Shown: positions 311 through 12,558 of the stretch, piece after piece | Layout: each line of letters opens with the position of its first letter | How positions within the stretch are numbered: the first letter of the stretch is position 1 | Assembly: GCA_026708685.1 (NCBI GenBank) | Contig: JAPOUL010000057.1 | Span: 1 to 64,000, forward strand | Direction of reading: 5' to 3' | Length of the DNA: 64,000 nucleotides | Source of the DNA: Bacteroidota bacterium | GTDB taxonomy: Bacteria > Bacteroidota > Rhodothermia > Rhodothermales > Bin80 | Notes under the pieces: model-generated | What the model saw: the letters and a program-made list of their open reading frames with translations, nothing else | Told to the model about the DNA's origin: nothing | Database searches by the model: none | Made by a program: the position numbers and the translations under genes

Positions 311-912
311 GCACCCTACGGGCAAAAAAGGACAGAAAGCCCACCTGCCTCCCAGCATTTCACGGAGCACCAACCCCACAGCAACTGGAAGATCAAAAAA
401 GCAGGGAGCAACGGACTCAACCTGCAACGAACCTGCTCCCCAGCATTTGAGGATCACCTGCAAGACGGTTACCTGAGGGAGGAAGAAATTTCAGCATTCA
501 AAAAGAATGAAACCACCTTCAATGCCCTCAAAGCCTTCTACCGAGCAACCAACGGAGGCGGATGGAAAAACAGCACTGGATGGTACACAACCACGGCATC
601 AACCAGCATGGAAGCCTTCAGAGACTGGTACGGATTCACGGTTATGGGGGGAGACCTAACAGACCTCAGCCTGAACTTCAACGGACTAGCGGGAACTATC
701 CCCCCAGAGATAGACAACCTCACCAACCTTACATGGCTCTATCTGAACGGCAACGAACTAACGGAAAAACGCCCACAGGGACTGGTAGGAGCAACGGAGA
801 TGTTGAACCTGCATTTTCATACCAACGCAGTGCTTTGTCCCCCACAAACCAAGAGTTCCAAAGATGGCTTAACAGCATTGAACATAGAATAGGCCCCACC
901 TCCTCCAACTAA
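311..912 (+). pseudogene. LRR protein fragment, frameshifted
   Basis: One frame is open from 311 (just after a TGA at 308) but has no ATG before 608. It encodes a stretch typical of secreted bacterial leucine-rich-repeat proteins: an ATNGGGWKNSTGW cap followed by an LRR unit with GTIPPEIDNLTNLTWLYL. The expected end of such proteins (QEFQRWLNSIE) lies in a different frame, at about 845-890. The frames join if one C is added to the C5 run at 839-843, so this is a single-base frameshift, a sequencing error or a phase-variable tract. The 5' end of the gene is missing. It lies next to a Sel1-repeat gene of similar A/C-rich base use, so both may belong to one secreted-protein locus. Confidence 0.65.
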
Positions 913-1058: not shown

Positions 1059-2063
1059 ATGACCCCAAAGAGAACAATCTACATTATTGCTCTACTCCTC
1101 ATTGCTCTGGGAGTAACCAAAACCCAAGGGCAAAGCATTGAGGAACTCAAAGAACAAGCAGAAGCGGGAAACCGTGAGGCCCAATTTGAATTGGGAACAA
1201 TCTATATCGAAGGGATTGAAGTGATTGAGAACTTTACGGAAGCAATCCACTGGTGGAAGAAAGCCGCCCTACAGGAACACGCAGAAGCACAATACCACCT
1301 CGGACGGGTCTATGATGAAGGGATGGGAGTAGAACAAGACTTAGTGGAGTCAACCCAATGGTGGAGGAAAGCCGCTAGACAAAGATACGCAGAAGCTCAA
1401 TACAAGCTCGCATTAGCCTACGCCGATGGAAGAGGAGAAGAACAAGACTTCGTTCAGGCATTATACTGGTTCAGACAAGCATCTGAACAAGGATTAGCAG
1501 AGGCCCAATATGAACTCGGATTCGCCTACGCCCAAGGGCATGGAATAGAAGAAAATCACGCTCTGGCAGCTCACTGGTACAGTAAAGCAGCCAGCCAGGG
1601 ACTCGTGGATGCACAATATGAACTTGGAAACGCCAGCAACGAAGGGATAGGAGTAGAGAAAAATCACTCGCAGGCAGCCCTCTGGTGGAAGAAAGCAGCC
1701 AGCCAGGGCCATATAAAGGCACAACACAATCTTGGAATGGCCTACGCTAATGGGAGTGGAGTAGATCAAGACTTCACACAGACAATATACTGGTACAGAA
1801 AAGCAGCCCTACAGGGACTCGCAGAGGCACAACACAATCTCGGAAGGATCTATGCTAATGGGAGTGGAGTAGAAAAAGACTTAACGGAAGCCTATTCATG
1901 GCACATCATTGCCAGAGCTACTGGTGGACTAACGGAGATGCAAGCCGAAATCCTTGAGGACTCAATCTTGAAACTAAGAAACGATCTAAGTCCTACACAG
2001 ATTATTAAAGCCCAACAGAGAGCAACCCAACTCCATGATGTCATTCAGGAACGCATGAAATAA
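1059..2063 (+). CDS. Secreted Sel1-like repeat protein
   Basis: This 334-aa protein starts with a basic-hydrophobic signal-peptide-like segment (MTPKRTIYIIALLLIALGV), followed by seven tandem 36-residue Sel1-like (TPR-related) repeats of the type AEAQYELGFAYAQG, and a short helical tail. The frame is open further upstream to 921, but I chose the ATG at 1059 because it directly precedes the signal peptide and has GGAGG at 1043-1047. Sel1 repeats form an alpha-solenoid used in protein binding; no catalytic domain is visible. The partner is unknown. The 108-bp period gives DNA-level repeats that could recombine. It sits beside the LRR remnant, and the strand is A/C-rich compared with core genes. 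Confidence 0.8.
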   Translation: MTPKRTIYIIALLLIALGVTKTQGQSIEELKEQAEAGNREAQFELGTIYIEGIEVIENFTEAIHWWKKAALQEHAEAQYHLGRVYDEGMGVEQDLVESTQWWRKAARQRYAEAQYKLALAYADGRGEEQDFVQALYWFRQASEQGLAEAQYELGFAYAQGHGIEENHALAAHWYSKAASQGLVDAQYELGNASNEGIGVEKNHSQAALWWKKAASQGHIKAQHNLGMAYANGSGVDQDFTQTIYWYRKAALQGLAEAQHNLGRIYANGSGVEKDLTEAYSWHIIARATGGLTEMQAEILEDSILKLRNDLSPTQIIKAQQRATQLHDVIQERMK

Positions 2064-3242
2064 GACCGAGCTACTAAGTATCGCCTTCCCAATTGAACTA
2101 ACTCATTCTACTAGAAATACTGAAGGCATCTGACATCTGCACTCGCAGGACAGGATGCCAACATTAACCACGTCTCAGCAGGGCAGGTAGTCAATAGTGA
2201 ACTACGTTGAGCAGAATGTTCGGGGCAAATGTGGTCCAACCCATCATGCAGATCCATCTTGCCCCTCCAACTCATCAAGTCGTTCGCATTGAGTATCAAA
2301 AAAGACAAACTCAAATACTACCACCGACCACAATGGATTCTGAATCATTGACTCCCCGCCTTTCTAAACCACCACCAGTAGGCACCATCCTTCCAAACCT
2401 TTTAATTACGCACTCCCACGCAATATATGGTTAACCTCGTTATATGACTCCCAAAGAACATCGGGTGTTTGGATGGTAATCAACGAAGACACATTGATGA
2501 CGTGTCGAAAAGATTTAGACGAGTGTCAAAACCAAGGTAGTAGAAGAATCTTAGGCCAAGATTGGATGACACCTGCTTACTGGCCAACTGGCACCTCTGC
2601 ATAAAGAAGACGAGAATTCGATCTGATTCCTTATATGGAATGTAGGAATCTGTCGGGATAATGTAAAGGGGACGTGTCAAGCGGGGGACATCCGTAAGAT
2701 AATAGCGTCATCAGTAACTGGTACAGTGAAATACAAAAAAAGACCAGAGTATCAAAAAGAACTTCGTGCTTCCATCGTTGCTGATCTTGGACAAGGTATG
2801 ACCATCCATGACGCATCATCCAATCTATTATAGTTCACATTGATGTAATTCGGTCTATCTGAAGACCCATCCTGAAAAATATCGAAAAGAATAATAAGCA
2901 AAATACAGACACTTAACTCCAAGATCAACAATACCTGCTAAGGGGAATGACCATCGAAAAGATCGCTTCCTAAGCACGGACTACATCGAAAGAAATTCAC
3001 AAGATCGGCGAAAACATCTCAAACAAAACAAAGAGCGAATTTGCATAGCATGGAAGAAAGTCATTGGTGCAGATATCCGTGCGGCCATGATAAGAAAGAC
3101 ATTGCCACAACTCGGCACAGAATTCTACGCCGTCAACAATACAGGATGGGGCATGCGAACCAAAAAAACGAATCCCGACACAAGATAGCACCATTGTTTC
3201 CAATCACGAATGGTATGAAATTCAACGATCAAGAGCAAACGC
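2064..3242. other. Gene-poor decayed region
   Basis: No complete gene is visible in this stretch. Short coding-like pieces survive. One plus-strand frame is open from 2898 to the TAG at 3186-3188 (about 96 codons, no start codon) and contains IAWKKVIGADIRAAMIRKT. Another plus-strand piece near 2660-2830 contains EYQKELRASIVADLGQG, faintly like the N-terminus of an IS630-type transposase, but I cannot confirm this. Stops interrupt all frames, so I read the stretch as gene remnants. Confidence 0.4.
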
Positions 3243-3693
3243 TTAGAAGCATTTTGAAGTCAGATCCATAGCAGGTTGAGATTCATAGAGGAAAGTCACC
3301 CAATACCCATAGTCATCACGCACGGAGTTCACGGCCAAACCTTCACGAGAGAAACGGCGGACACGAGGAGGATTCAACAAAAGATCATCCACCACCTCCA
3401 AATAGGAGGCAGCAACCCCACACCCACCAATGGCAGTAAAGTACTCAAATCGCTAATTCGCATGAAGATTCATTGAACGGAGTAGGAGCACATCAAAGGC
3501 ATCGCCCGAAGGACATGCAACTTCGAATGGCTTCCTCTCAACCGCGCACTCCTCACCAAACCGACCGCACAAGGCACGAACCAACTCAGTCTGAGCCTCT
3601 ATGAATTCTGATCAGCAGTAGGGAACTCAGGCGAAACGCCTCAGCATGGGCCATGGAAATGCTGTTAAAGGGAATGACGATGGGCATCATCAT
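3243..3693 (-). pseudogene. Unknown degenerate gene
   Basis: On the minus strand, ATG codons at 3693-3685 open a frame starting MMMPIVIPFNSISMAHAEAF. A frameshift near 3600 moves the coding signal to a second frame (EAQTELVRALCGRFGEE). That frame runs to a TAA at 3245-3243 but is broken by an in-frame TAG at 3455-3453. After the TAG the sequence stays protein-like (RFEYFTAIGGCGVAASYLEV, then VNSVRDDYGYWVTFLYES). The intact product would have been about 150 residues. I do not recognise the family. One frameshift plus one nonsense codon mark it as a pseudogene. Confidence 0.5.
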
Positions 3694-3815
3694 CGTTTAG
3701 GTTTCAGGGAACTAAGGCACTGAACTACCGTAAAAACCCTTTACTCCATGCGTACAATCGTAATGTAATCGCATGTCTTACCAATCAGCAAGAACAAAAC
3801 TATAGGTGATAGCTT

Positions 3816-5507
3816 ATGAAGATCAAATCATTGGAGATCCGAAACTTTCGAGGAGTCAAGAACCTCAAACTTGATTTAGATGAAACAACCGTTCTGATCG
3901 GTGAAAACAATACGGGGAAAACCTCCATCATGGACGCACTAAGGCTCTGCTTGAGTGAAATCAATCCTCAGCAGGAACTCGTTTTTGAACCACTGGATTT
4001 CCACCTTCCCGGGCATCTATCCGATCCTTCATCTTCGGATCCAATAGAGATCACCATTACATTTTCAGAGGAATTCTATGGAGAATGGAATGAGAAAGTA
4101 TCCGAGATATTGGAGGGACTGGGAATAATAGTACTTGATTCTGAATCAGGAAAATACATTTGCTTGCGTGTAACTTGTCAGTATGATTCTAGCATAAGAC
4201 AATTCGTTCAGGCTATAACATTTCTGAACCAAAAAGGAGAGATCATAGATAATATCTCTGACAGGTCATATTCTACACTCGCACACCAATTTGAGTATTA
4301 TTATCTGAAAGCACTTCGAGATGCAGGCTATCACTTTGATGGAACAGGCCCATTCTGGAGACCATTTCTTCAGGATTCCCAGCTGTCAGATGACAATAAA
4401 TCAGCTATCGAATCCAAGTTAAAAGAAATCAACGATCTCATTGTGTCTTCACATCATCGTTTTGACCAAGTGAAAACAAAACTTCAGGAGTTACAGAAGA
4501 TTGTTCTGGTTGCAAGCCAAGATGTCGTTGACATAGAGGCTGTACCAAATAGAACCTTGGATATTCTCTCCAAATCTCAGGTGCTCATTGGAACGAAAAC
4601 AGGATCCATGATCCCCCTTTTTCGCCATGGTGAAGGAACGCAAAGCCTTGCTGTTCTCATGCTCTTTTCAGCATTTCTGGAAACTCAAGATCAAGATGCA
4701 ACGATCTTGGCTCTGGAGGAACCAGAGGCACATTTGCATCCTTCCGCAGTACGCATACTATGGAGAATTGTACAGACGTTTGCACATCAGAGGATCATAT
4801 CAACGCATAGCGGAGAACTCTTATCCGAGGTTGATATCCATCATATTCGCCGATTAGCTCAAACACCCAAAGGTATTCAATCATTTCAATTGTTGCGTGG
4901 GCAGTTAACCGAGGAAGAAACCCGTAAATTTAATTATCATATTCAACGAAGCCGGGGCGAGTTATTATTTGCAAGATGCTGGTTACTGGTTGAGGGAGAG
5001 ACCGAAGTATGGGTGTATTCTGCAGCAGCTACTGCACTTGGTTGGAATCTTCATGATATAGGAGTGCGAATTGTGGAATATCAACAATCCGATGTGAGTA
5101 TGTTGGCCAAGGTTGCCAATGCTCTGGGGATATCTTGGTACTGTGTTGGTGATGATGACAATAATCGTCTCATCGTTGAAAGAAAACTCAAGCCCCTGCT
5201 CAAAGGTAGCAAGGAAGCCGAAAAAATGACTTTTCCATATCCGAATATAGAAACTAATTTGCTTCAAAACGGTTTTGGTGATGTATACGAGGTTTTCATG
5301 TCAAATCACGATCGAATCACAACATCAATAAATGACCCTGACTATTGGGAAGACTATGCAAAACACTTCCCAAAACGCTCTAAGGTCAAAGCTGCATTCA
5401 ATGTTGGCCTTGAGTTAGAGACTAGGGGAATGGAATCTGTATCCCCACAGATTCGTTCTGTATTAGACACAGTGAGAAGCATGTCAGACGGTAGTGATCA
5501 TGATTGA
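3816..5507 (+). CDS. gajA: Gabija-like GajA, OLD-family ATPase/TOPRIM nuclease
   Basis: This 563-aa protein has the architecture of a class 2 OLD nuclease. The N-terminal ABC/SMC-type ATPase has Walker A GENNTGKTS (residues 29-37), a signature-like GEGTQSLAVL, Walker B ALEEPEAHLHP (near 299) and an H-loop ISTHS. The C-terminal TOPRIM nuclease has the catalytic glutamate in LLVEGETE (near 390) and an acidic triplet D446-D448. All expected catalytic residues are present. In Gabija, GajA cleaves DNA during phage infection together with GajB. The next gene overlaps it by 14 nt and encodes a UvrD-like protein, which supports the assignment. The exact Gabija subtype is not certain; it could be another class 2 OLD pair. 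Confidence 0.85.
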   Translation: MKIKSLEIRNFRGVKNLKLDLDETTVLIGENNTGKTSIMDALRLCLSEINPQQELVFEPLDFHLPGHLSDPSSSDPIEITITFSEEFYGEWNEKVSEILEGLGIIVLDSESGKYICLRVTCQYDSSIRQFVQAITFLNQKGEIIDNISDRSYSTLAHQFEYYYLKALRDAGYHFDGTGPFWRPFLQDSQLSDDNKSAIESKLKEINDLIVSSHHRFDQVKTKLQELQKIVLVASQDVVDIEAVPNRTLDILSKSQVLIGTKTGSMIPLFRHGEGTQSLAVLMLFSAFLETQDQDATILALEEPEAHLHPSAVRILWRIVQTFAHQRIISTHSGELLSEVDIHHIRRLAQTPKGIQSFQLLRGQLTEEETRKFNYHIQRSRGELLFARCWLLVEGETEVWVYSAAATALGWNLHDIGVRIVEYQQSDVSMLAKVANALGISWYCVGDDDNNRLIVERKLKPLLKGSKEAEKMTFPYPNIETNLLQNGFGDVYEVFMSNHDRITTSINDPDYWEDYAKHFPKRSKVKAAFNVGLELETRGMESVSPQIRSVLDTVRSMSDGSDHD

Positions 5508-7437
5508 TACGAATCATCTCAACGCTAACCAACTTGAAGTTTTTGAATGGAGGGATGGACCGCTCTTGGTTTTGGGTGGACCTGATTCTGGAAAAATCAA
5601 GGTTCAGTCCATTCGGATGGTTGATATACTATATAAACAGAGAAGACGACCAGGAATACTATCTCTCAGCTCTGGCACTAAAGCGATCAATTCTTTGAAG
5701 AGGGCTGTCAAGACATTACTGATTGGTCGTTTTATAGGATACCGTGTTTGCACATTCCATACGTATGCCATGCAACTTTTGCGTCAGCATGGAAGCCATA
5801 TAGGAATTGAGCTAGATTTTGCCCTACTCACTCATCCAGAAGAGCGTGCCATCATTCTGGAGAAAGCATGTGAGAAGGTGATCGGCCATTCCAAATACAT
5901 TCAGGAAGATTATACTATTCTTCTCAGGCTTATAGATCAACTTTTTTCTGAGTCCTACAATCCAGAACACCCAGATGACCAAAAGGCTTGGCCAAATTGG
6001 GTAACAGATTTATTTATTGCATATTGTGACGCTCTTGAACAATACAATCGTCAAGATTATGGTAGCTTAATTTATTTCGCCAACCGATTGCTTAAAGAAA
6101 AAACATACTTAAGAACGAATGTAGTCAATATAACATGGAGGCAAATTTGTGTTTCCGATATCCATCTCATCGATCAAGCACAGTATGATCTTCTGCGACA
6201 TCTTGCACCAAACAGAAACAACCATCTTTTGGCATTTGCAGATCATACACAACTCGTCTACCAATGGAATGGAGCAAGTCAGAAGCGATTGTCTGATCTC
6301 AAACGCGATTACGATCTCACAGTCACCCAACTCCCCGAAAACAATCACTGTTCTCCAGAAATAACATGTCGTGCGAATCGCCTGATCGTGGTAAATTCTG
6401 GTATACAAAAAGAGATGGAAAAGGTGAAGCTAGTCAATGGGGCTCCATCGTCTACCATGAAGATCAACTACGAGATGCTCAATTCCTCCAGAGAGGAGTC
6501 TGAATATATTGCCGAGAGTATCTATTCTAACAATCTTCAGGCTGAAGATTGCGTGATCCTTGCACGGACGAATCAACTGATTCAAGCCATCGCCCATGAA
6601 CTTCAAAATGTAGGAATAGAGACCTTTGTGCCTCAACAAAAGATCCCATTTGATTCTCCAATCTTAGGAGTGATGAGTGCAGCTTTGGCACTTGCTGCGT
6701 CACCCAATGACCGGGTCATGTTAAAAACACTTTGCCGACAGTGGAATCTGGTCACGGGCATCATTGTTGAATCTCAATCAGTGGAGATGGATTCTATCTT
6801 CACCGATAGTGATTTTCTGAGAGCTTGGATCAATGTTGTCAGTCGTATCAAACCGGAACAGGATCATTATATATTCAACTTAATTCGTGAAAACCTCCAG
6901 GAATCTTTTGATTTTCTGCACACACTTGAGATGTTTTTTGATCATTTTGACCATGGATCAAATGGTCAGCATCAAGACGAATTTCTAAGCAGTGATCTGG
7001 AAATATGGCAGAAGAAGCATGCCGACATTCTTGATCAGCATGGTTCAGACCTTACTCTGAATACCTACATGAAGAACTTCTTCCCTTCAACGATTGGTCG
7101 CCCCACGCCTACTTCCATTCAATGCTTAACGGTTCATCTCGCGAAGGGACTTCAATTTAAGCATGTCTATCTTGCTGGCATGTCTCAGGGCATCTTTCCT
7201 GCGGTGACTGCCCTCCATCATGGAGTTCATAGCGATGAAATGGAGAGAGAACGTAGAAGCTGCTTTGTAGCACTCACAAGTGCACAAGAATCTGTAACCC
7301 TGACTCGCTCCAAAGAATACTTCGGTACTCCAAGAGATCCATCCCAATTCTTAGACGAAATGGGAATCACATCTACAACCGAAGATACTCTCCCCCACCA
7401 TTCTACATCACTTGAGAAAGAGGCTGCTACAGCGTAG
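5494..7437 (+). CDS. gajB: Gabija-like GajB, UvrD/Rep-type protein with degraded motifs
   Basis: This 647-aa protein aligns by eye with UvrD/PcrA/Rep helicases along its full length and overlaps gajA by 14 nt, so the two are probably co-translated. Key positions differ from active helicases. Walker A reads GPDSGKI, with Ile35 in place of Thr. Motif II reads LIDQAQ, with Gln228 in place of the catalytic Glu of DE. Motif IV reads NNHCS in place of NYRS. Motif V reads KGLQF in place of KGLEF. Motif VI reads ALTSAQ, with Ser596 in place of the arginine finger of TRA. Motif III keeps only part of its consensus (ADHTQLVYQWNGA). The reading frame is intact, so the protein is likely made but may not hydrolyse ATP or unwind DNA. 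It could act as a nucleic-acid sensor or scaffold for GajA. Confidence 0.8.
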   Translation: MIMIDTNHLNANQLEVFEWRDGPLLVLGGPDSGKIKVQSIRMVDILYKQRRRPGILSLSSGTKAINSLKRAVKTLLIGRFIGYRVCTFHTYAMQLLRQHGSHIGIELDFALLTHPEERAIILEKACEKVIGHSKYIQEDYTILLRLIDQLFSESYNPEHPDDQKAWPNWVTDLFIAYCDALEQYNRQDYGSLIYFANRLLKEKTYLRTNVVNITWRQICVSDIHLIDQAQYDLLRHLAPNRNNHLLAFADHTQLVYQWNGASQKRLSDLKRDYDLTVTQLPENNHCSPEITCRANRLIVVNSGIQKEMEKVKLVNGAPSSTMKINYEMLNSSREESEYIAESIYSNNLQAEDCVILARTNQLIQAIAHELQNVGIETFVPQQKIPFDSPILGVMSAALALAASPNDRVMLKTLCRQWNLVTGIIVESQSVEMDSIFTDSDFLRAWINVVSRIKPEQDHYIFNLIRENLQESFDFLHTLEMFFDHFDHGSNGQHQDEFLSSDLEIWQKKHADILDQHGSDLTLNTYMKNFFPSTIGRPTPTSIQCLTVHLAKGLQFKHVYLAGMSQGIFPAVTALHHGVHSDEMERERRSCFVALTSAQESVTLTRSKEYFGTPRDPSQFLDEMGITSTTEDTLPHHSTSLEKEAATA

Positions 7438-10020: not shown

Positions 10021-10291
10021 GCGCCCGTAGCTCAACTGGATAGAGCAGCGGACTTCTGCAACAAGTGGGCCGCTATCTGGAAACGGATAGCGTGTAAGTG
10101 GTCAAATTCGGGGAAGCCTTCGGAACATGAGTTTACGGTAATCCCGAGCCAAGCCCTTCGGGGAAGGTGTAGAGACTAAACGGCCACCCCTTCCTTCATT
10201 TGAAGAAGGTGAAGAGATAGTCCAGGGAGTCGGGAAACTGGCACAAACCTGAATCCGCAGGCTGCAGGTTCGACTCCTGCCGGGCGTGCCA
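10021..10291 (+). tRNA. tRNA-Arg (UCU) interrupted by a group I intron
   Basis: The exons 10021-10057 and 10252-10291 join to a normal tRNA: acceptor GCGCCCG/CGGGCGT, D arm GCTC/GAGC, anticodon stem GCGGA/TCCGC with loop CTTCTAA (anticodon TCT, Arg), and T arm GCAGG/CCTGC. GCCA is encoded at the 3' end. A 194-nt insert follows the third anticodon base. It has group I intron core elements and ends in G. Without splicing the anticodon loop is destroyed, so the tRNA depends on intron removal. Confidence 0.93.
10058..10251 (+). mobile_element. Group I intron in tRNA-Arg, no ORF
   Basis: The intron contains all four conserved core segments in order: P (AAATTCGGGGAAG, 10104-10116), Q (TAATCCCGAGCCAAG, 10139-10153), R (GTGTAGAGACTAAACGGCC, 10167-10185) and S (AAGAGATAGTCC, 10212-10223). 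It follows a U at the 5' splice site and ends with the expected terminal G. At 194 nt it is in the size range of the smallest bacterial group I introns and has no room for a homing endonuclease. Self-splicing is expected but not shown by sequence alone. Confidence 0.92.
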
Positions 10292-10365: not shown

Positions 10366-12558
10366 TTAAATCGGTGATGAATCTTCATCATCAGAATCAA
10401 AGTATTCCTCCCGTGTAAGGTTCTCAAAACGTGCAAAATCTTTTCTGAAGAGAAGCTGGATATTTCCAGTTGGACCATTGCGATGCTTTCCGATGATGAT
10501 TTCCGCCTTCCCTTCCGTGGGTTGCCTATCCTTGTCTTCCGTAATTCCATAGTACTCTGGACGGTAGATAAATGCAACTACATCCGCGTCCTGTTCAATC
10601 GCACCACTTTCACGCAAGTCAGCTAATTGAGGGCGTCGATCTTTTCGATCCTCCGCATTTCTGTTGAGCTGACTCAATGCAATCACGGGAATATCCAGCT
10701 CCTTGGCAAGCTCCTTGAGGGATCGCGAGATGTTGGCAATTTCCTGCTCTCGGTTATCTTTGCTACGTCCCTGCATCAATTGAAGGTAATCTACCAGAAC
10801 AAGTCCGATCTGATGTTCAGACTTTAACCTACGGCATTTAGCACGGAGCTCCATGACCCCAAGTCCAGCAGAATCATCAATAAAAATTTGTGAGTGAAAA
10901 AATCTGTCGGCCGCCTTGACCACCTCCGAAAAATCATTATCATTCATCGTTCCGCTTCGTGCTTTCTGTGCATTGACTCTAGCTTCCGACATAATCATGC
11001 GTTGTGCCAATTGGCGCGAACTCATCTCTAAAGAGAAAATGGCGGTTGGAATCGGGTTGTCACGATCCATTGAAGCATTTCTTGCACAGTCAAGGGCAAA
11101 AGCTGTATTGTGGACGCATACATCAGAGGCAACAAAATTGTGTGTTTCATCAACCGTTAGATCGTAGACAGGCCGATCCCCCATGCATTCAATGTTAACA
11201 ATGTCATCAAAAAGGATATGATGAGGATGTCCGCATGTCTGATCAACTCTGATATGTGGAGTAACAGACCATCCAGTAGACCGCTCACGAAGTTGGCAGA
11301 GTATTCCGAGTCGTAGGCCGAGATGTGCGATTTGCTGGGCTAAATGGGCAGAGGAAACCACGATGGATGACGTTTCGCTTGGAAAGAGTTCAAAAAAGAA
11401 GAGGTCAAGACATTCCTTTTGGAGCGTAAATGCCCATTGAGGGAGCACTTGGATTCCTCGTGCTTTGATCGCCGTACCCCGAGTGGTAGGCATAGACCAT
11501 GTCACTTTGCGAGTATTGCGGATCGTATTGGCGAGTTGTTGAAGATCAAAATCGGGAACAGTGTGGGTGCCGAATACGGGTAACTCACGCGGTACAGCAA
11601 TGGACTGACCCAAGGAGAGTTCTCCCAAAGGCTGCCAGCCCTGATGGGTCAGAAACGGATGTGACAAAGTGGTGCTCACGCTTCGGCCTAACCGAGTCGT
11701 GACACGATATACGGGCTTGATTCCGTCATAGAGATATGCTGAGGGTTGTGTGATCGAAAAGCGTCGGTCTTCTGCAAGCGTTAGGATATGAGCGTTTCTG
11801 TGCTGATAGAGGTCAGAAATACGGATAAGTTGACCGTCAGACTGCAAGATCGGTGTATCGGCATCCACACATTTTCCCATAGAGGGTCGACCAGCGATGA
11901 TAATCAGGTCAGAATTCTGCCATCCCCCTGTAAGTTTGTCAAGGTCGTAGAAACCACTGGTGATACCAGAGAGCAGACGATCACGGTGGCTAATCGTTTG
12001 TAAATGCGAGATCGTTTCCTGAAGGATATCTTTGAGCATTTGGGTTGAACGACGAACTTGACTGTGAGAGATCTTAAAAAGATCGCTTTCTGCTTCATCA
12101 AGAAGATCAAAAGCATCCGTTGATGGATCATAGGCTTCAGTGATGCGCTTGGACATAGAGCCAATCACTTTGCGGAGCAGAGATTTTTCAATGATGATGC
12201 GTGCATGACGCTCCGTGTTCGCGGATGTTGATATTCGATCCGTCAACTCTGCTAGATAAGGGATTCCTCCGATCATTTCTAGCTGTTTCTGAGATCGCAA
12301 TCTCTCAGAAACAGTAATCAGATCTGTCGGCTGGTTTTTGTTAGAGAGATCCAGAAGGGCCTCATAAATTGCTGTATGCTTTGGAAGATAGAATGCATCA
12401 GCAGGCAAAATGGAGCTAGCAATACTTACAGACTTAGGATCCATCAGCATGGATCCTAGAACATACTGCTCCACATCAATCGCCTGAGGAGGAACTCTAC
12501 CCGATGAATCCTGCAACTGATGAACCTGAACGGATGATGAATGTCGAAATGCCTCCAT
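10366..12558 (-). CDS. dnaB: Replicative DNA helicase DnaB containing an intein
   Basis: The 730-aa precursor consists of a DnaB of about 475 aa interrupted by a 255-aa intein. The N-terminal domain (residues about 20-170) has the typical PPQAIDVEQYVLGSML start. The RecA-like helicase domain begins with SGFYDLDKLTGG and RPSMGK. The intein sits inside Walker A after GK, and the helicase resumes at TAFALDCARNA with LVLVDYLQLM (Walker B region), SQLNR and SGAIEQDADVV. DnaB unwinds DNA at the replication fork as a hexamer and cannot bind ATP until the intein is spliced out. The gene is convergent with the tRNA cluster and lies 22 nt downstream of the udg-like gene on the same strand. Confidence 0.95.
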   Translation of the reverse strand: MEAFRHSSSVQVHQLQDSSGRVPPQAIDVEQYVLGSMLMDPKSVSIASSILPADAFYLPKHTAIYEALLDLSNKNQPTDLITVSERLRSQKQLEMIGGIPYLAELTDRISTSANTERHARIIIEKSLLRKVIGSMSKRITEAYDPSTDAFDLLDEAESDLFKISHSQVRRSTQMLKDILQETISHLQTISHRDRLLSGITSGFYDLDKLTGGWQNSDLIIIAGRPSMGKCVDADTPILQSDGQLIRISDLYQHRNAHILTLAEDRRFSITQPSAYLYDGIKPVYRVTTRLGRSVSTTLSHPFLTHQGWQPLGELSLGQSIAVPRELPVFGTHTVPDFDLQQLANTIRNTRKVTWSMPTTRGTAIKARGIQVLPQWAFTLQKECLDLFFFELFPSETSSIVVSSAHLAQQIAHLGLRLGILCQLRERSTGWSVTPHIRVDQTCGHPHHILFDDIVNIECMGDRPVYDLTVDETHNFVASDVCVHNTAFALDCARNASMDRDNPIPTAIFSLEMSSRQLAQRMIMSEARVNAQKARSGTMNDNDFSEVVKAADRFFHSQIFIDDSAGLGVMELRAKCRRLKSEHQIGLVLVDYLQLMQGRSKDNREQEIANISRSLKELAKELDIPVIALSQLNRNAEDRKDRRPQLADLRESGAIEQDADVVAFIYRPEYYGITEDKDRQPTEGKAEIIIGKHRNGPTGNIQLLFRKDFARFENLTREEYFDSDDEDSSPI
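11107..11871 (-). mobile_element. DnaB intein at the Walker A site
   Basis: The intein spans residues 230-484 of the DnaB precursor. It starts with Cys (CVDADTPILQSDG, block A), has a block B-like segment (VSTTLSHPFLTHQGW), and ends with block F/G (VYDLTVDETHNFVAS, then VCVHN). The first residue after it is Thr, completing GK-T of Walker A. At 255 aa it is longer than a minimal splicing domain but too short for a full LAGLIDADG endonuclease, and I see no such motif, so the homing domain is likely degenerate. Confidence 0.93.

What the first reader, a model, noticed from the sequence alone, without database searches (positions are those of the whole stretch)
5494..7437. Gabija-like helicase partner with motif residues lost across the ATPase core
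Seen directly: Walker A T-to-I (GPDSGKI), motif II DE-to-DQ (LIDQAQ), motif IV NYRS-to-NNHCS, motif V GLEF-to-GLQF, and motif VI TRA-to-TSA (arginine finger lost). The frame is intact and the partner GajA keeps all its ATPase and TOPRIM residues. Known: GajB homologues normally carry functional superfamily 1 helicase motifs. Inference: this GajB may act as a non-hydrolysing sensor, scaffold or inhibitor, which would be a variant Gabija mechanism, or the gene is in early decay.
Basis: partly seen in the sequence, partly recalled or inferred. Interest (0 to 1): 0.75.

Follow-up and report, generated by a model that had tools for sequence, protein, structure and literature searches.

The report
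Gabija defence with dead helicase subunit
A bacterial anti-virus system called Gabija here carries a helicase subunit that has lost the residues needed to burn ATP, yet the gene is kept open and its DNA-cutting partner is intact, which suggests the dead subunit does a different, non-motor job.

Summary
Window 3816-7437 holds a two-gene Gabija operon in a Rhodothermales MAG. GajA is ordinary: 4 of 87 conserved positions changed. GajB keeps an open 647-codon frame and a UvrD-type fold but departs at 45 of 136 positions conserved in its homologues. The losses include Walker A Thr (T35I), both motif II acidic residues (D221S, E222D), the motif IV Arg (R285H) and the motif VI Arg (R596S).

Neutral decay is disfavoured. 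The sister operon of the same genome shares the GajB acceleration, which began before the two split. A joint GajA+GajB codon model rejects neutrality (p about 1e-7). That many neutral losses should bring about 11 stop codons. Truly decaying relatives show stops with intact motifs. The acceleration centres on the ATP-binding domain, and a third, independent operon repeats it.

Best reading: GajB retained as an ATPase-dead pseudo-helicase subunit, comparable to AddB and RecC. This is inferred; nothing was assayed. Mutating GajB's catalytic residues abolishes defence in two studied Gabijas, so the mechanism here would differ.

The parts
3816..5507 (+). gajA: OLD-family ABC ATPase plus TOPRIM nuclease, 563 aa, catalytic motifs intact (GENNTGKT, EEPEAHLHP, STHS, LLVEGETE, GDDDNN)
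   Evidence: PADLOC GajA PDLC00094 E 2e-180; Pfam OLD-like_TOPRIM; 4/87 conserved columns changed; motif strings
5494..7437 (+). gajB: UvrD-like SF1A helicase homologue, 647 aa (or 645 from ATG 5500), ATPase-motif-degenerate
   Evidence: PADLOC GajB PDLC00114 E 4e-139; Pfam UvrD-helicase; AF2 model pLDDT 87; 45/136 conserved columns changed
5578..5598 (+). GajB motif I (Walker A), residues 29-35 GPDSGKI; canonical GPGSGKT (G31D, T35I; Lys34 kept)
5662..5688 (+). GajB motif Ia, residues 57-65 SLSSGTKAI; canonical ALTFTNKAA
6151..6174 (+). GajB motif II (Walker B), residues 220-227 VSDIHLID; canonical VDEFQDTN (D221S, E222D)
6238..6276 (+). GajB motif III, residues 249-261 ADHTQLVYQWNGA; canonical ADDDQIIYQWNGA
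6337..6360 (+). GajB motif IV, residues 282-289 ENNHCSPE; canonical E(N/S)YRCPPE (R285H)
7129..7158 (+). GajB motif V, residues 546-555 TVHLAKGLQF; normal for the clade
7270..7293 (+). GajB motif VI, residues 593-600 ALTSAQES; canonical AITRAQE(T/S) (R596S)

Best explanation
The window encodes a Gabija variant whose GajB is a retained pseudo-helicase. Shown from sequence: the GajB catalytic residues are lost, GajA is intact, the frame is kept under purifying selection, and the loss of constraint is focused on the ATP-binding domain 1A and shared with the sister operon. Inferred: GajB still folds and docks on the GajA tetramer through its 1A/1B face but does not hydrolyse ATP. ATP sensing and triggering then fall to GajA's own ABC ATPase, with GajB acting as a structural or DNA-discriminating subunit, as the inactivated helicase domains of AddB and RecC do in their nuclease complexes.
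For: Catalytic columns canonical in 85-87/87 homologues are lost here. GajA has 4/87 conserved-column changes against 45/136 in GajB. GajB/GajA distance ratio is 2.02 for window versus sister operon and mostly 1.4-1.7 against close relatives; background median 0.88, 99th percentile 1.34. The two operons are sisters in both gene trees, and the GajB stem is already long (0.63 against 0.26). The joint codon model gives omega 0.15 on the window GajB branch; omega 1 rejected, 2dlnL 28, p 1e-7, robust to taxa and topology. Neutral simulation predicts about 11 stops for 45 losses, P(0) about 1e-5. Acceleration is 3.0-3.7x in domain 1A against 1.7-2.2x elsewhere. The C111 operon repeats the pattern in another Gabija subfamily. 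Changed hydrophobic core positions stay hydrophobic more often than the neutral expectation. AF2 gives a full UvrD fold, PcrA Z 32.9, BcGajB Z 19.1.
Against: No assay exists. In B. cereus, GajB D162A/E163A abolishes defence (PMC10822852), and in PA14 GajB ATPase and DExx mutations do too (PMC12407980), so the operon could be non-protective. Lys34, Gln13 and Gln253 remain, so ATP binding is not excluded. Codon third positions are saturated, and GajB alone rejects neutrality only weakly (2dlnL 4.0, p about 0.046). The AF2 alignment contained canonical homologues, which biases the model towards the normal fold. Enrichment of changes in motifs over other conserved columns is weak (p 0.046 for the window, not significant for the other two).
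Confidence: 0.6

Rival explanations
1. GajB is in neutral decay, while GajA persists under its own selection or by inertia.
For: Related genomes carry truly decayed Gabija copies (L114, L115) and this genome has a broken GajA remnant on C39. Published catalytic mutants do not defend.
Against: Open 647-codon frame despite 45 conserved losses, P about 1e-5 under neutrality. Omega well below 1. Acceleration predates the sister split. Decayed relatives show stops with intact motifs, the reverse pattern.
Confidence: 0.17
2. The degenerate GajB acts as a decoy or regulator: it forms mixed complexes with a canonical GajB of the same genome (C112, C1), or it escapes phage inhibitors that target the GajB ATP site.
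For: The genome has five GajA-GajB pairs, three with degenerate and at least one with canonical GajB. Phages encode the anti-Gabija protein Gad1 (PMC10781630).
Against: GajA of C112 is only 29% identical to the window GajA, so cross-assembly is doubtful. Gad1 contacts mostly GajA. No direct evidence.
Confidence: 0.13
3. GajB remains an active ATPase through compensating residues or a changed active site.
For: Lys34, Gln13, Gln253 and Trp258 are kept; an Asp (222) stands at the catalytic Glu position.
Against: The Walker B Asp, the Args of motifs IV and VI (phosphate contacts in UvrD-type helicases, established knowledge) and the Walker A Thr are all lost together, and acceleration peaks in the ATP-binding domain.
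Confidence: 0.1

Closest known systems
Gabija (GajA-GajB), Bacillus cereus VD045 and Pseudomonas aeruginosa PA14
   Same: Two-gene operon, OLD-family ATPase-TOPRIM nuclease followed by a UvrD-like protein; model matches BcGajB 8sm3_B at Z 19.1
   Different: The published GajB keeps all helicase motifs and needs them for defence (PMC10781630, PMC10822852, PMC12407980); here they are lost
Gabija operons of Gemmatimonadota, Acidobacteriota and Rhodothermales (L035-L050, L009-L011)
   Same: Closest homologues: GajA about 50-56%, GajB about 37-43% identical
   Different: Their GajB catalytic motifs are canonical
AddB and RecC inactivated helicase domains
   Same: SF1 fold without most ATPase motifs, part of a nuclease complex (PMC4824097)
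   Different: Different families and partners; an analogy of working principle, not membership; the loop-helix latch was not looked for
UvrD/PcrA/Rep helicases
   Same: Four-subdomain SF1A fold (PcrA 1qhg Z 32.9)
   Different: ATPase residues lost; partnered with GajA

Membership tests
Gabija system | gajA next to gajB in one operon | tested here: met
   3816-5507 and 5494-7437, same strand, overlapping by 14 nt
Gabija system | GajA with ABC ATPase and OLD-type TOPRIM, catalytic residues intact | tested here: met
Gabija system | GajB of the UvrD-like family by sequence and fold | tested here: met
   PDLC00114 E 4e-139; model Z 19.1 to BcGajB
Gabija system | GajB with functional SF1 ATPase motifs (shown essential in two systems) | tested here: not met
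   T35I, D221S, E222D, R285H, R596S; so filed as a Gabija-family variant, not a canonical Gabija
Gabija system | 4:4 GajA-GajB complex and phage protection | not testable with these tools
   needs protein and phage assays
SF1A DNA helicase (active) | Walker A GKT/S, DE in motif II, Arg in motifs IV and VI | tested here: not met
AddB/RecC-type inactivated helicase | sequence membership of the AddB or RecC families | tested here: not met
   best families are GajB and UvrD/PcrA; no AddB or RecC family among the hits listed

The most novel reading that the evidence does not exclude
A distinct Gabija mode in which GajB is an ATPase-dead pseudo-helicase, evolved at least twice within one genome (C52/C124 lineage and C111), with nucleotide sensing and triggering moved wholly to GajA and GajB reduced to a docking or DNA-discriminating subunit.
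Probability: 0.4. Interest if true: 0.75.

Novelty: new variant of a known kind. Interest (0 to 1): 0.58.

Why it matters
What GajB's ATPase does in Gabija is an open question: BcGajB can hydrolyse ATP (PMC10822852) but shows no unwinding or DNA binding (PMC10681800), yet catalytic mutants lose defence. A natural GajB without the catalytic residues, paired with an intact GajA, separates the structural role of GajB from its ATPase role and can be tested directly against canonical relatives of about 40% identity.

Tried and rejected
GLQF as a loss: rejected, normal in L009 and L011. dN/dS on GajB alone: third positions saturated, p only about 0.046; replaced by a joint GajA+GajB model with shared neutral time. 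Search for close copies: single-protein scan of genome contigs found none, viral contigs none, plasmids no better than about 29% identity over the full length in the listed rows; a draw of 394 genomes of the phylum gave only canonical-family matches outside the own genome at lower scores, whose motifs were not all inspected. The 80 homologue loci were found through patterns in motifs III and V, so copies lacking both would be missed. Helicases L017 and L018 were first taken as Gabija relatives but have no GajA and sit beside polA and transporter genes. Mapping the BcGajA-GajB contact residues (GajB V147, Q150) was not done, as the BcGajB sequence was not at hand. IQ-TREE did not run (thread setting); FastTree was used.

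Full report
WHAT IS THERE. The window holds gajA at 3816-5507 and gajB at 5494-7437 on the + strand, overlapping by 14 bases. PADLOC models name them GajA (E 2e-180) and GajB (E 4e-139); Pfam gives OLD-like TOPRIM and UvrD-helicase.

CHECK OF THE OBSERVATION. Alignment with homologues and with PcrA confirms losses in Walker A (T35I), motif IV (R285H) and motif VI (R596S). It corrects motif II: the true segment is CVSDIHLID against CVDEFQDTN, so the Walker B Asp is Ser and the catalytic Glu is Asp. LIDQAQ is the tail of that motif. Motif V GLQF is normal in close canonical relatives. Lys34, Gln13, Gln253 and Trp258 are kept. Among 87 homologues the key catalytic columns are canonical in 85-87; the exceptions at these columns come from the same genus: L004 (same genome) and L016 (G009, Walker A Lys to Thr). 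L002 (same genome) keeps these residues but has lost motifs Ia and III.

GAJA AGAINST GAJB. At columns at least 90% conserved, window GajA departs at 4 of 87 and GajB at 45 of 136; background medians are 1 and 3. The sister operon on contig C124 (GajA 59%, GajB 39% identical) shows 6 of 87 and 55 of 136. The GajB/GajA distance ratio is 2.02 between the two operons and mostly 1.4-1.7 between the window and its close relatives, against a background median of 0.88 and 99th percentile of 1.34. The two operons are sisters in both gene trees, and the GajB stem is already long, 0.63 against 0.26 in GajA. The relaxation therefore started before they split.

DECAY OR RETENTION. With neutral time shared between the linked genes, omega for GajB is 0.15 on the window branch, 0.38 on the stem and 0.18 on the sister branch, against 0.115 in the background. 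Omega 1 on the window branch is rejected (2dlnL 28.2, p 1e-7), and this holds with only taxa of similar GC3 and with the GajA topology. GajB alone gives only p about 0.046 because third positions are saturated. A late neutral tail long enough to change 45 conserved positions would bring about 11 stops, P(0) about 1e-5. Decaying copies in related genomes (L114 in G005, L115 in G012) carry stops but keep motifs where the sequence survives, the opposite pattern. Changed hydrophobic core positions stay hydrophobic in 14 of 18 cases against half expected (p 0.015).

WHERE CONSTRAINT WAS LOST. Relative to canonical pairs, window GajB distance is raised 3.7-fold in the N-terminal part of domain 1A (motifs Q, I, Ia, Ib), 3.0-fold around motifs II-III, and 1.7-2.2-fold elsewhere. 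The third degenerate GajB, on contig C111 in a different Gabija subfamily, shows 2.9- and 4.2-fold in the same places and 1.4-2.0 elsewhere, with a raised GajB/GajA ratio (1.15-1.43 against 0.74-0.96 for L003 and L015). Its GajA N terminus runs off the contig, so its Walker A could not be seen. The release of the ATP site therefore appears to have happened at least twice in this genome. Counting columns alone, motif columns are only modestly enriched among the window's changes (31/77 against 14/59, p 0.046).

STRUCTURE. An AF2 model (66 sequences, mean pLDDT 87.1, pTM 0.74) is a complete UvrD-like fold, closest to PcrA (1qhg Z 32.9) and matching BcGajB (8sm3_B Z 19.1; 1A-1B alone 2.5 A over 207 residues, 8tjy_B). 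Because canonical homologues were in the alignment, this shows compatibility with the fold, not proof.

MECHANISM. In B. cereus the GajA tetramer carries two GajB dimers, contacts lie in GajB 1A/1B, and complex formation is essential (PMC10781630; PMC10822852). BcGajB shows no unwinding or DNA binding (PMC10681800), and its motif II double mutant loses defence and cuts linear DNA more actively (PMC10822852). PA14 GajB motif mutants also fail to defend (PMC12407980). The window GajB naturally lacks the equivalent residues. The most likely reading is a retained pseudo-helicase that docks on GajA without hydrolysing ATP, comparable in principle to the inactivated helicase domains of AddB and RecC (PMC4824097). 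Folding, docking and the absence of ATPase are inferences.

NOVELTY AND LIMITS. It is a Gabija-family operon failing one functional feature of canonical Gabija, hence a variant. No report of a natural motif-degenerate GajB was found in the open library, which is not exhaustive. Only one genome of the species was available, so within-species selection could not be measured.

Noticed in passing
window 10021-10291 (+): tRNA-Arg(UCU) interrupted in the anticodon loop by a 194-nt group I intron (Rfam RF00028, 74 bits), between tRNA-Pro and tRNA-Cys.
   Followed up: partly
window 10366-12558 (-): DnaB helicase with an intein (Pfam Intein_splicing, residues 237-484).
   Followed up: partly
G000 contigs C52, C124, C112, C111, C1, C39: One genome carries five GajA-GajB pairs and a broken GajA remnant, a heavy Gabija load.
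   Followed up: partly
L016 / L126 (G009:C77): GajB with intact frame and mostly canonical motifs but Walker A Lys34 to Thr and motif V Lys551 to Arg, beside an intact GajA.
   Followed up: partly
L120 4089-6113, L121 4698-6674: Orphan GajB-like helicase without GajA, beside an Exo_endo_phos nuclease, an AcrB-type transporter and polA in two genomes; PADLOC scores it as GajB, so GajB-only calls can mislead.
   Followed up: partly
window 562-912 and 2063-3816: Leucine-rich-repeat-like remnant in two frames and a long stretch without sizeable ORFs upstream of gajA, suggesting pseudogene debris.
   Followed up: no
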